Below the pieces are notes generated by a model. The model was not told where the DNA came from. It ran no database searches and was given only the letters and a program-made list of their open reading frames with translations. A DNA stretch of 64,000 nt from Peronospora farinosa (taxonomy: Eukaryota; Oomycota; Peronosporomycetes; Peronosporales; Peronosporaceae), in the NCBI GenBank assembly GCA_947646735.1, contig CANTFK010000976.1, positions 62,001 to 126,000 of the forward strand. The letters run 5' to 3'. Each line of letters starts with the position of its first letter. Position 1 is the stretch's first letter. A program made the translations under genes and the position numbers. This document shows positions 37,101-39,489 of the stretch, one piece after another.

Positions 37101-39207
37101 CGACCAATTCGATTCTCCTCGCACGGTGATTGCCAATGACATGGATTTGCGTGCAAGAATCATTCACGAGTATCACGATGCTCCTGCTGGCGGCCATTTA
37201 GGCCGCGAAAAGACTTTCGCGGCTGTGTCTCGAGACTTCTTCTGGCCCCACATGTATAAGTGGGTACGCAACTGGATCCGAACGTGCGAAATATGCCAGC
37301 GTGTGAAGCCATCTCCATCGTCACAGGCTCCCTTGCGATCGTTGCCAATTGCAGCAGAGGCATGGAGATCAGTTTCGATGGACTTTATCTTCGGGCTTGC
37401 GCCCGATAGCCAAGCTCGAACGGGCATCTTGGTCTTTGTTGACAGATTCAGCAAGATGACACATCTCGTGCCTGTTCACACTAAGGTCACCGCGGCAGAG
37501 ACCGCGGCGCACTTCATCGACGCGGTGTTCCATCATCATGGCCTTCCAGAAAACATTGTTTCGGACTGTGATCCGCGATTTACGTCCGCATTTTGGACAT
37601 CACTTTTCGAGCTCCTCGGGACAAAACTGCTGATGTCGACGGCATCCCATCCGGAAACGGATGGGCAGACCGAGCGCGTGAACCGAGTCCTCGAAGATGT
37701 TCTTCGGAGTTATGCTACGTCATTTACAAGTTGGAGTGCATTTTTACCACTCGCTGAGTTCGCACTCAACAACGCCGTACACGCGTCAACAGGGTTGACG
37801 CCATTTTTTGTAAATTCGGCTCGTCACCCTCGTGTTCCTACTGTCCTGGCCGTGGGGCGACCCACAACACCTAGTGGCTCCACTCTGGGGGGGGATAAAG
37901 GTGATAAACAAGGATCGAGTGCAGCTCACGGTATTTTGAGCGCGAATGCAGTAACACGATCCAAGGCAAAGACGGCCATTTTGACGCCATCAGACGTGGC
38001 GTCCCCATTAGCTCGATGGACTGCGCAGACATTGATTGACCCGTCTTCGGGTAAACGTTCCCTTACTGCCAACTACGCGCCGATTGAGTCGGCGCGACCA
38101 ATTGATGACATGGCCGTGTCGGAATTTATACTCCAACGTCAAGCCATCACCAGGTTTGTACGCGACGCACTACAAACTGCTGTAGACCAACAGAAGGAGA
38201 ACGCTGACAAACATGGAAGAAAGAACATGAGCAAGTTTGAGAAAGGTGACCGTGTATTATTATCGACGGAAGGTTTAAGGGATTCTGCGGTCACTAATCT
38301 GGGCGCGAGTAAACTCGCGCCACGCTTCATCGGTCCATTCAAGGTTCTGAAGGCAATTGGCGACGCTTATACACTCGACGTCCCCTCTTCACTGCGACTC
38401 CACCCGACATTCTATGTCGGGCGGCTGAAGGAATATCGTCCGGCTACGCTTCACGGTTTGGCTCCGACGCCGGCTTCAGGGGTTCGTAAGTCGAACGGCC
38501 TTCCCGTCGCGCTCGACGCGCCGATGACATGGGGCGGGGTCTCGATCCCGTCTGAACCTGACCAAGCATCTGGCGCTCCAGAATCCTTATCCGCTCGAGC
38601 AGTTCACGGTTCGACTGCCGGGTCTCACTCGAAGTCTTCTCCGCCTGGGCAGCACGTTCACTGGCAGCCTCAGCCTCCAGCCGAGCATCGGCAGCTATAT
38701 TCACGGCCTGATCAACATCGTCCTGAGCAACCAGGACGCCAGCTCTACCACCGCGAGGGCCCTCCTCCGCTTGTTGATGCGGAGGGACAGGTGCGCTGGA
38801 TTGTAGACCGCATTGTGGGTCACGAGGACCCTCCACAACCATTACTGCAGTCGGCTCATGAGAAGCGTGCGGTTCCATCCGTGCGTAGGTACCGAGTACG
38901 TTGGCTTGGATTCCCTCCCGAGCAGGATACATGGGAACCACGTTCCTCGCTCCTTCGTGACGTTCCAGATGTGGTTCTGTCGTATGAAGCCACGAAGTCG
39001 GACTATTCCAAGGCGGGCGAGCACGCGAACGCTCTCGTGACAAACGAGAGCGGTAAGGAGATTCACGTTGTCGGAAACGGGAACGATGACGCGAACGAGA
39101 ACGATGTCGCGAACGAGAACGATGCCGTGAACGAGAACGTCGCGGTGAATACATATCACGATTGCGAGGCGAGAATCGCGAAGTTCCTCTCGATTGGCGA
39201 GCCATAA
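34099..39207 (+). CDS. pol: Pol polyprotein of element B1 (protease, RT, RNase H, integrase, chromodomain)
   Basis: Open without interruption. It is probably made as Gag-Pol through the frameshift at 34099, because the first candidate start in this frame is only a GTG at 34159. Counting from that GTG: protease motif LLDSGATNN with Asp45; a repeated VEPGFP-type linker near 205-270; RT with YFDDIF at 616-621; RNase H (CDASDFSIG, YTDHASL, LADALSR); integrase finger (YHDAPAGGHLG ... CEIC); D1075-D1136-E1172 with 35 residues between the last two; and a chromodomain near 1545-1600 (RYRVRWLGFPPEQDTWEP). The tail is probably about 30 residues shorter than ancestral because of a 334-bp deletion. The last 760 bases overlap a long antisense frame. 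Confidence 0.95.
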   Translation, partial: RSGPVGAGRPTGWNGGPGPPVAAQPSSPPALRARLNATTTSGDSRLIIVSLHVAGVRRPLRALLDSGATNNFFRESCLSMLPPSIQVREGPVQVVVKLADGKPHRVSRREVSLPYTFDGFRSNDDFLVIAMNYAFDCILGMPWLARYKPQIDWLARSVRRRRKFDVSEVFTHLLVDWPNVTVVDRDSTTLAVHRASDGSLCTACAVLRDTSDSDSSLQSDEDDEDDAVEQGFPRVINAVEQGFPHVNAVVEPGFPSSPTVVEPRFPHGHTVVEQGLPRGFTAAEQELPHQVSTVEFGVLPSSVSGILDDDIQCLEGGDGLSPDCGSPASSSDSKHDGDNRTENLALECVHAIVYVEGSPQRRQYIEVESPPRNASSITSLPGLSWKHFLRDLKEGTVEQVCLITNEVVTVANEEHMVRPRSAEPKSAREERFASQSWEALRESGNPVYDIAREYADVFPDKIPAELPADRGVRHEINLVPGSKYCVTRQWPLPRDQVEAIDAFFEGRRKAGHVRESISPHSSPTFCVKKATGGWRIVHAFNKLNDATIPAQTPITRKDMVLNSMSGSVIFSAIDLTDGFYQILMRPSDIPLTAVSTPSGMLWEWLVMPQGLKNAPATFNRMVSQVLRPLRNFAPSYFDDIFVHSRAEGNLNDVQVHLQHLKQVFQVMRDNKLYANLKKCVFCAPEIPVLGCYVSKSGVRADPEKVSSICSWPTPKNPTELRQWLGLANYLHKYTKDYAGSIQPLSSLLKKDATWLWRPEHQAAFEAVKKSLASAPVLVLPDDSKPFHVVCDASDFSIGCALMQFADEGRERVVSYQSRQMKPAEENYPVHDKELLAMRYALIKFCVHLLGERTFALYTDHASLRTAMKSPHLSQRMARCLSFFSEYNFVMHYKPGKTNILADALSRRPDYDPRTALSRQATDDEDDDDRCAMCVSLNLTRVTPEPCLFDEIVAAYKGDSDYADIIEYLRAPSDAALGALSRTKRDHIHRYSLDGDLLLYSIDQFDSPRTVIANDMDLRARIIHEYHDAPAGGHLGREKTFAAVSRDFFWPHMYKWVRNWIRTCEICQRVKPSPSSQAPLRSLPIAAEAWRSVSMDFIFGLAPDSQARTGILVFVDRFSKMTHLVPVHTKVTAAETAAHFIDAVFHHHGLPENIVSDCDPRFTSAFWTSLFELLGTKLLMSTASHPETDGQTERVNRVLEDVLRSYATSFTSWSAFLPLAEFALNNAVHASTGLTPFFVNSARHPRVPTVLAVGRPTTPSGSTLGGDKGDKQGSSAAHGILSANAVTRSKAKTAILTPSDVASPLARWTAQTLIDPSSGKRSLTANYAPIESARPIDDMAVSEFILQRQAITRFVRDALQTAVDQQKENADKHGRKNMSKFEKGDRVLLSTEGLRDSAVTNLGASKLAPRFIGPFKVLKAIGDAYTLDVPSSLRLHPTFYVGRLKEYRPATLHGLAPTPASGVRKSNGLPVALDAPMTWGGVSIPSEPDQASGAPESLSARAVHGSTAGSHSKSSPPGQHVHWQPQPPAEHRQLYSRPDQHRPEQPGRQLYHREGPPPLVDAEGQVRWIVDRIVGHEDPPQPLLQSAHEKRAVPSVRRYRVRWLGFPPEQDTWEPRSSLLRDVPDVVLSYEATKSDYSKAGEHANALVTNESGKEIHVVGNGNDDANENDVANENDAVNENVAVNTYHDCEARIAKFLSIGEP

Positions 39208-39489
39208 CTGGAAGCTGCTACCATCCTCGAGCATCCGATTCCAACGTTGGATGAAGGCGCACCAAGAACGTTGTAGAGCTTCATGCTCGATTCCATCAAG
39301 ACCTTTCCCGCGCAGTTTTCGAAATCGGCGGAAGTATTCCCGCATCATGTCCAGTGAGTCCGGAGCGTGAGCTCCGGACAAGTCGTACAGCGACCAAGGT
39401 ATGAGCTGCCGCGCCATGATGCTGGTTGATGCATTCCCGCTGATGTATCTTGGGCGTCCTGCTGGATTGGGTTCTGGGTCTCCGGACAT
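38444..39489 (-). pseudogene. Antisense ORF of element B1, split by a 334-bp deletion
   Basis: The N-terminal half starts at the ATG at 39489, only 80 bases from the 3' LTR, and fills the space between pol and the LTR. It reads IPWSLYDLSGAHAPDSLD, MMREYFRRFRKLRGKGLDGI and LEDGSSFQLWLANREELR. The C-terminal half (38444-39205, open for 253 codons) has Arg/Ser repeats (SRSRHRSRSRHRS) and a coiled-coil-like stretch (ELLERIRILERQML). The halves are in different frames here. Adding the 334 bp present in B2 (53937-54270) puts them in phase, about 459 codons in all, with one TGA in the B2 insert. I do not know its function. Homologous-looking proteins are, to my recollection, common in Phytophthora genomes. 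Expression from the 3' LTR is inference. Confidence 0.6.

What the first reader, a model, noticed from the sequence alone, without database searches (positions are those of the whole stretch)
38444..39489. Long antisense gene at the 3' end of a Ty3/Gypsy element
Element B has a second, oppositely oriented reading frame. It starts in the 360-bp gap between pol and the 3' LTR and runs under the chromodomain end of pol. It has a helical N-terminal domain, an Arg/Ser-repeat middle and a coiled-coil-like C-terminus. It explains the otherwise empty 3' region, is present in both B copies, and its halves fall into phase when the B1 deletion is filled (about 459 codons). The layout resembles antisense accessory genes of some retroviruses, though no sequence relation is claimed.
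Basis: partly seen in the sequence, partly recalled or inferred. Interest (0 to 1): 0.88.

Follow-up and report, generated by a model that had tools for sequence, protein, structure and literature searches.

The report
Antisense accessory gene in Gypsy retrotransposon
A high-copy jumping element in a probable oomycete genome carries a second gene on its opposite strand, partly sharing DNA with its main enzyme gene, and sequence comparison shows that the protein of this hidden gene was maintained by natural selection although some recent lineages have lost it.

Summary
Confirmed. Family B, a Ty3/Gypsy element with a chromodomain, has an antisense gene (aORF) lying between pol and the 3' LTR and under the end of pol. 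In the part outside pol, internal-branch changes fall 47/42/115 on codon positions 1/2/3, omega is 0.36, and pairwise dN/dS is 0.19-0.26 for the four most diverged pairs, near pol's. In the 839-nt overlap constraint is a mosaic: pol dominates over the chromodomain, the aORF over its coil, and pol codons avoid antisense stops (1 of 3000 resamplings did). The protein has a helical Cys/His domain, an RS-rich middle and an Ala-rich coil, and no relatives in Pfam or the PDB. Against a need in cis: two aORF-breaking deletions are shared by several sites, and six of the nine copies with the longest pol frames have a destroyed N-domain. Best reading: an antisense accessory protein, probably nuclear and usable in trans, placed like antisense genes of plant Grande/Retand, Botrytis Boty or HTLV-1 HBZ. 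Expression is untested.

The parts
32697..39912 (+). Ty3/Gypsy element copy B1 (5' LTR 32697-33038, 3' LTR 39569-39912, target duplication GTTAC on both sides)
   Evidence: LTR ends, length and duplication read by script; self-BLAST
33065..34114 (+). gag, 349 codons
   Evidence: Pfam Retrotrans_gag 2.3e-08, Ty3_capsid 4.7e-08
34159..39207 (+). pol, 1682 codons: protease, RT, RNase H, integrase, chromodomain; its C-terminal end is altered by the B1 deletion
   Evidence: Pfam; in L016, L023, L061, L066 and L067 the sense frame ends in ...EAHHE 466 nt inside the aORF
38800..38988 (+). pol chromodomain, opposite the linker of the antisense protein
   Evidence: PF00385 at pol residues 1548-1610, 6.1e-07
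39178..39417 (-). antisense gene, first 80 codons of the conserved N-terminal domain, from the ATG at 39417 to the deletion junction
   Evidence: tblastn 97.5% to codons 1-80 of an uninterrupted copy; codon-position constraint begins here
39418..39489 (-). upstream in-frame leader (ATG at 39489); no sign of protein-level constraint, possibly untranslated
   Evidence: internal changes 15/18/13 by codon position; L060 has a similar peptide with a Met, L057 a similar one without
39177..39190 (.). junction of a ~334-nt deletion (8-nt repeat at the break) that removes about codons 81-187, including the Cys/His motif, and shifts the frame
   Evidence: BLAST against L003; same junction at 5 places
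38444..39190 (-). antisense gene, codons 188-435 and stop: RS-rich region (about 39023-39190), linker opposite the chromodomain, Ala-rich coiled coil (about 38537-38691; limits estimated by eye)
   Evidence: tblastn 97.6%; RS count; mosaic constraint
53150..54444 (-). antisense gene of copy B2, codons 21-435 in broken pieces
   Evidence: tblastn 84.2% and 82.8%; open pieces

Best explanation
The element carries a real antisense protein gene (aORF). It encodes about 435 residues: a ~155-residue helical domain with mostly conserved Cys/His (C-x2-C-x13-H-x3-C, zinc-finger-like), an RS-rich basic middle, and an Ala-rich coiled coil. Inferred working: a minus-strand mRNA starts in or near the 3' LTR and reads into the 3' end of pol. 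The protein enters the nucleus through its basic RS region, dimerises through the coil, binds RNA or chromatin, and helps the element at a nuclear step, for instance RNA handling, nuclear entry of the cDNA complex, or chromatin choice beside the pol chromodomain. It can be supplied in trans, so deletion derivatives spread on the protein of other copies. Shown here: the frame, its conservation, protein-level selection in the past, the mosaic in the overlap, and deletion-bearing copies at several sites. Inferred: transcription, nuclear site, partner, supply in trans, and positive rather than negative effect.
For: Codon-position pattern 47/42/115 on internal branches of a tree of 62 copies, p = 2e-11; omega 0.36, bootstrap 0.26-0.51 (300 resamples), against 1.4-1.9 in four of the other five frames and 0.42 in the fifth, which shares its third position; pairwise dN/dS 0.19-0.26 for L016/L060, L016/L057, L016/L058 and L060/L057, pol-only 0.18-0.34 for the same pairs; negative control, the same antisense frame continued into pol-only DNA, shows nonsynonymous changes in excess (1.14) and synonymous ones low (0.67); chromodomain and coil segments differ, Fisher p = 0.0007; stop avoidance 1 of 3000; ascertainment simulation; constraint starts at an ATG with A at -3 and G at +4; sense frame end kept in a 27% diverged copy; W, C and H columns kept in eight aligned copies.
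Against: No transcript or protein evidence. No full initiator or TATA match in the LTR in the antisense direction (partial TCATT, CAATTT and CCAAT matches only) and no AATAAA on the minus strand for 1.5 kb after the stop. Copies at several sites lack an intact N-domain, so the gene is not needed in cis at present and may be dispensable. Seven of 204 internal changes in the N-domain make stops (expected 14), so some internal branches run through dead copies. The Cys/His motif is not invariant: L061, otherwise open for 475 codons, lacks C132, and L070 lacks C114. The ATG at 39417 is lost in L070, and L062 and L014 are frameshifted there. Models are low confidence (mean pLDDT 48 and 58) and no fold match reached E 0.001.
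Confidence: 0.5

Rival explanations
1. The antisense protein is a self-limiting repressor, as HTLV-1 HBZ is towards Tax-driven transcription: it damps sense transcription or transposition of the family, and lineages that lose it amplify.
For: Six of nine copies with a pol frame of 1600 codons or more were seen to have a destroyed N-domain, as escape from repression would give; antisense retroviral proteins are described as inhibitors (PMC10186651, passages).
Against: A repressor acting in trans would still be supplied by other copies, so losing it would not free the loser; long-term selection for a self-harming protein within a family is weak unless it acts in cis (reasoning, not tested).
Confidence: 0.2
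2. The gene was useful in the past and is now decaying in this genome: the protein was selected along old internal branches but current lineages do without it.
For: Terminal-branch omega 0.76 in the N-domain; deletions at several sites; many copies with stops.
Against: A number of near-identical young copies keep 460-502 open codons; pol shows the same relaxation on terminal branches (omega 0.65), as expected after insertion.
Confidence: 0.2
3. Only the antisense RNA matters (double-stranded RNA or small RNA control); the open frame is incidental.
For: Small RNAs of both polarities map along Gypsy elements of Phytophthora infestans (PMC3522703, passages).
Against: An RNA-only role predicts no codon-position bias; bias is strong, in the right frame, and starts at an ATG.
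Confidence: 0.04
4. The frame is a by-product of pol codon usage and GC content.
For: In the overlap first codon positions of the two frames face each other, a register in which each protein constrains the other.
Against: The non-overlapping 155 codons carry the strongest signal; the same register in the adjoining pol-only stretch of L016 has 20 stops in 498 codons, the overlap 0 in 279.
Confidence: 0.02

Closest known systems
Antisense additional ORFs between pol and 3' LTR of plant Ty3/Gypsy elements (Grande gene23, RIRE2, Retand, PvRetro13)
   Same: Position between pol and 3' LTR, antisense, kept in many copies, function unknown, nuclear protein reported for Grande (PMC7264820, parts 1 and 2 of 3 read)
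   Different: No TRP28 or SMC domain by Pfam. Probable oomycete, chromodomain element, and 839 nt shared with pol; a word search for 'overlap' found nothing in the Retand paper (PMC11963269, passages)
Botrytis cinerea Boty element with antisense gene brtn
   Same: Antisense additional gene in a Gypsy element of a filamentous plant-associated microbe (named in PMC7264820, and cited in PMC8365987, passages; original paper not seen)
   Different: Sequence relation not tested, as the record was not available here
HTLV-1 HBZ and other retroviral antisense proteins
   Same: Minus-strand gene at the 3' end, coil in the C-terminal part, start next to the 3' LTR (PMC10186651, passages)
   Different: No bZIP by Pfam; RS-rich and Cys/His regions instead; expression not shown
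Oomycete Gypsy elements Chronos with captured chromodomain
   Same: Oomycete Ty3/Gypsy with chromodomain (PMC5348765, passages)
   Different: Chronos carries an additional archaeal/plant-type RNase H, not seen in the Pfam scan of B pol; 'antisense' does not occur in that paper's main text

Membership tests
Antisense additional ORF (aORF-3R) of LTR retrotransposons | Antisense frame between pol and 3' LTR | tested here: met
   Positions, LTRs; here it also runs 839 nt under pol
Antisense additional ORF (aORF-3R) of LTR retrotransposons | Kept in most copies with conservation like other element proteins | tested here: inconclusive
   Constraint like pol, but two deletions shared by several sites and a third at one site destroy it
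Antisense additional ORF (aORF-3R) of LTR retrotransposons | Own antisense transcript and nuclear protein (reported for Grande) | not testable with these tools
   No RNA or cell data
Retand TRP28 antisense protein | TRP28 domain PF04195 | tested here: not met
   Pfam scan of the L003 frame, of L057, L060 and two window pieces: only Alanine_zipper and ELYS below their cut-offs
HBZ-like retroviral antisense protein | bZIP domain | tested here: not met
   No bZIP family at E up to 10 or up to 1
SR protein | RS domain | tested here: met
   60-residue stretch with 40 R+S and 22 RS/SR dipeptides in L016, 35 and 17 in L057; what counts as an RS domain is recalled, not from a call
SR protein | RNA recognition motif | tested here: not met
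   No RRM in Pfam scans
Chromodomain-bearing Ty3/Gypsy element | gag, protease, RT, RNase H, integrase, chromodomain in this order | tested here: met
   Pfam

The most novel reading that the evidence does not exclude
A dual-strand gene in an LTR retrotransposon in which the constrained parts of each protein lie opposite the tolerant parts of the other: pol chromodomain against an aORF linker, aORF coil against a pol linker. The antisense product is a new protein family (Cys/His helical domain, RS, coil) that serves the whole family in trans, so that lineages which deleted it and kept pol now live on copies that still make it.
Probability: 0.35. Interest if true: 0.75.

Novelty: new variant of a known kind. 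Interest (0 to 1): 0.62.

Why it matters
Antisense genes of LTR retrotransposons are known from plants and a fungus, with unknown roles. A family with 150 or more matched places, a clear protein-level selection signal, a long overlap with pol and natural loss lineages makes the question of what such genes do testable by comparison: transcripts and spread of copies with and without the gene can be contrasted in one genome. It also warns annotators that some oomycete 'hypothetical proteins' with RS tracts may be antisense retroelement genes.

Tried and rejected
Chance or codon-bias frame: rejected by synonymous resampling and by the constraint in the non-overlapping part. The sense-strand mirror frame over the N-domain also shows a low ratio (0.42); it shares its third codon position with the aORF, and in B1 the longest sense ORF listed wholly inside the non-overlap is 58 codons (39194-39370), so it was set aside. 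Choosing copies by aORF match could bias the ratio of third-position to other changes. Simulated neutral copies (5000 per setting, mean divergence 0.142, 0.196 and 0.173, a little below the real 0.157, 0.228 and 0.191) gave a mean ratio of 1.0, maxima of 2.07, 2.00 and 1.95, and 1.51, 1.32 and 1.36 in the best 1% by protein identity. The real values are 2.06 (L060, just inside the maximum), 2.24 (L057) and 2.34 (L058), and 1.64-3.32 in the other nine copies listed. Protein database search was off; viral contigs gave no relative (36 stretches matched a pattern, none confirmed). Pfam, PDB by sequence and profile, and Foldseek gave nothing usable. Indel-phase test: too few indels in the N-domain (2 distinct in 37 copies) and affected by how copies were chosen, so not used. 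Whether pol-intact copies avoid the aORF: the table used only 82 of 151 matches, 95 of 169 and 71 of 150, and its N-domain column misses at least one copy whose row I had not pasted (C248:309809), so I rely on it only for copies whose DNA was read.
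Full report
What the thing is. Element B1 (32697-39912) is a complete, young Ty3/Gypsy copy. Its LTRs of 342 and 344 nt differ by one substitution and a 2-nt indel, and a GTTAC duplication flanks it. It encodes gag (Retrotrans_gag, Ty3_capsid) and a pol with protease, RT, RNase H, integrase and a chromodomain. On the minus strand two frames cover 38444-39489. A second copy, B2 (47268-54444), holds the same antisense sequence in pieces. The genome (46.85 Mb, 274 contigs) is very probably an oomycete: the elicitin family, recalled as specific to oomycetes, matches at 22 places and in 0 of 14 control genomes.

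The frame is family-wide. A search of the genome with the C-terminal half matched 169 places (150 of 568 candidates scored). The non-overlapping N-terminal part matched 151 places (150 of 612 scored), and a 27% diverged relative (L057) used as query matched 150 (150 of 609 scored). A number of copies have the frame uninterrupted with 460-502 open codons; others carry stops or are cut. B1 has lost about 334 nt in the middle (8-nt repeat at the break), which also shifts the frame, so in B1 the gene is broken.

Start. On the tree of 62 copies the 24 codons from the upstream ATG (39489) show 15/18/13 internal-branch changes by codon position, no bias. The next 40 codons, from the ATG at 39417, show 8/12/34. 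That ATG has A at -3 and G at +4 and is present in L003, L057, L060, L061, L064, L066, L067 and L073. It is lost in L070, and L062 and L014 are frameshifted there. The protein is therefore most likely about 435 residues. The leader peptide itself is partly similar in L060 (with a Met) and L057 (without).

Selection on the non-overlapping part. I aligned 63 copies, built a tree of 62 (L053 left out for poor coverage) and counted changes on internal and terminal branches. In the 155 non-overlapping codons internal changes are 47/42/115 (chi-square 49, p = 2e-11; changes treated as independent) and terminal changes 177/140/178. The pol-only stretch shows the corresponding pattern in the pol frame (140 and 107 internal changes at pol positions 1 and 2, 314 at position 3); the LTR shows none (38/52/47). 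Corrected for mutation spectrum, omega on internal branches is 0.36 (bootstrap 0.26-0.51) for the aORF and 0.32 for pol, and on terminal branches 0.76 and 0.65. In the N-domain four of the five other frames give 1.4-1.9 on internal branches; the fifth, which shares its third codon position with the aORF, gives 0.42. Seven of the 204 internal changes create stops where 14 are expected, so part of the internal branches passed through dead copies. Pairwise dN/dS in the N-domain against L016 is 0.25 (L060), 0.20 (L057), 0.26 (L058), 0.29 (L065), 0.33 (L071), 0.36 (L073), 0.34 (L067) and 0.56 (L061); L060 against L057 gives 0.19. The copies were chosen by match to the aORF, and some for open frames; neutral simulation indicates that this does not create the pattern (figures in Tried and rejected).

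The overlap. The aORF shares 839 nt with pol, first codon positions facing each other, so every pol third position is a second position of the aORF. In L016 the antisense frame has no stop in 279 codons of overlap, against 20 in 498 in the adjoining pol-only part; 1 of 3000 synonymous resamplings of the overlap was stop-free. Internal changes were classed by effect on both proteins in three segments whose limits I set beforehand from the domain positions. Over the chromodomain segment, changes silent for pol but altering the aORF are in excess (54, expected 34) and the converse is not (25, expected 30). Over the coil segment the reverse holds (46, expected 49; 61, expected 47). The two segments differ (Fisher p = 0.0007), though the coil segment alone does not reach significance (p = 0.13). 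Over the RS segment both classes are above expectation (41 against 34 and 46 against 34) and doubly altering changes are low (36 against 49). A finer count agrees in part: aORF codons 201-240 (RS) 12/24/35 and 361-400 (coil) 18/14/27 lean to the aORF, 281-320 (chromodomain) 15/41/11 to pol, while 161-200, 241-280, 321-360 and 401-435 show no clear lean to the aORF. The sense frame ends 466 nt inside the aORF in L016, L023, L061, L066 and L067, and 457 nt inside in L057, whose pol is itself interrupted, so the arrangement is older than the divergence of these lineages. Pairwise dN/dS in the overlap is weaker for both proteins (aORF 0.61-0.83, pol 0.45-0.80 over nine pairs), as expected for shared DNA and low-complexity linkers.

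The protein. Invariant columns of the N-domain in eight aligned copies include W52, C53, W59, W72, C93, W97, C103, H106, C111, C114, W125 and H128. C132 is kept in six of the eight; L061 (otherwise open) and L071 lack it, and L070, not in that alignment, lacks C114. C111-x2-C114-x13-H128-x3-C132 looks like a C2H2/C2HC finger; this label is mine. The middle holds 40 R+S in 60 residues with 22 RS/SR dipeptides (35 and 17 in L057). The C-terminal part is Ala-rich and matches Pfam Alanine_zipper below its cut-off. Single-sequence models of two window pieces show helices in the N-domain and a C-terminal helix, at low confidence. No Pfam family above cut-off and no PDB-sequence, PDB-profile or Foldseek relative was found. 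The large protein database could not be searched.

Evidence that it is not needed in cis. The B1 deletion junction occurs, without mismatch, at 5 places with 4 different 3' flanks; two of the five are neighbours in one array with the same flank. A lineage with a broken aORF has thus reached at least four sites. A second deletion (about 146 nt in the N-domain) is shared by L076, L077 and L079, which differ in flank and lie beside pol frames of 1835 codons, and a third (about 320 nt) is in L078, beside a pol frame of 1868 codons. Of the nine copies with pol frames of 1600 codons or more, six have a destroyed N-domain by sequence (L076, L077, L078, L079, L002, B1), two have an N-domain match (C231, C183:591298) and one was not examined. 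Conversely, several copies with an intact aORF, such as L003 and L009, have pol split at a variable G run, so neither gene is intact everywhere. This fits supply in trans, recent dispensability, or release from a repressor; the data do not decide between these.

How it most likely works. The constrained frame starts 152 nt from the LTR on the minus strand, so its message should begin in or near the 3' LTR, as for HTLV-1 hbz (PMC10186651, passages), or just upstream of the gene as for Grande gene23 (PMC7264820, parts 1 and 2 of 3). No clear promoter motif or nearby AATAAA was seen. Basic RS tract, coil and Cys/His domain suggest a dimeric nuclear RNA- or chromatin-associated factor. This is inference. 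I put 0.95 on a real protein-coding gene, about 0.5 on the nuclear, trans-acting helper, and 0.2 each on a repressor and on present dispensability.

Comparison. [quoted passage not shown] PMC8365987, passages), and TRP28-bearing ones are general in Retand (PMC11963269, passages). The B gene sits in the same place and orientation but shares no recognised domain with those that could be tested. In ten searches of the held open-access library (of these 13, 17, 63 and 64 showed only part of the papers found) I saw no oomycete case in the titles and abstract starts listed. Subscription journals and Repbase were not searched, so absence from print is not shown. Verdict: new variant of a known kind.

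Noticed in passing
37887-37894 and related loci: A run of G in pol between integrase and the C-terminal part varies in length (5: 1, 6: 1, 7: 19, 8: 14, 9: 5 in the 40 of 69 copies where it was found). In L003 and L009 (run of 7) and L007 (run of 9) pol is split into two frames there. It could be reverse-transcriptase slippage, transcriptional slippage that restores both products, or assembly error.
   Followed up: partly
L002, L005, L009 (G000:C183:205969-219233): Three copies stand about 6260 nt apart on one contig; in L002 and L005 the LTR is followed directly by sequence that reads like the inside of gag, so this looks like a tandem array of partial elements.
   Followed up: partly
39528-39550: A short perfect inverted repeat (AGCACTCAC/GTGAGTGCT) sits just before the polypurine tract, in the leader of the antisense gene (seen).
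   Followed up: no
31880-32690 and after 39913: B1 seems to have inserted into a stretch of degenerate short tandem repeats rich in ACCGGGGACAGGG-like units (seen by eye).
   Followed up: no
52588: B2 has a run of 12 G at the corresponding place in its pol (correspondence worked out).
   Followed up: no
L079:1-521 and 515-1601: This locus holds a second, partial copy of the same 3' region directly beside the first.
   Followed up: no
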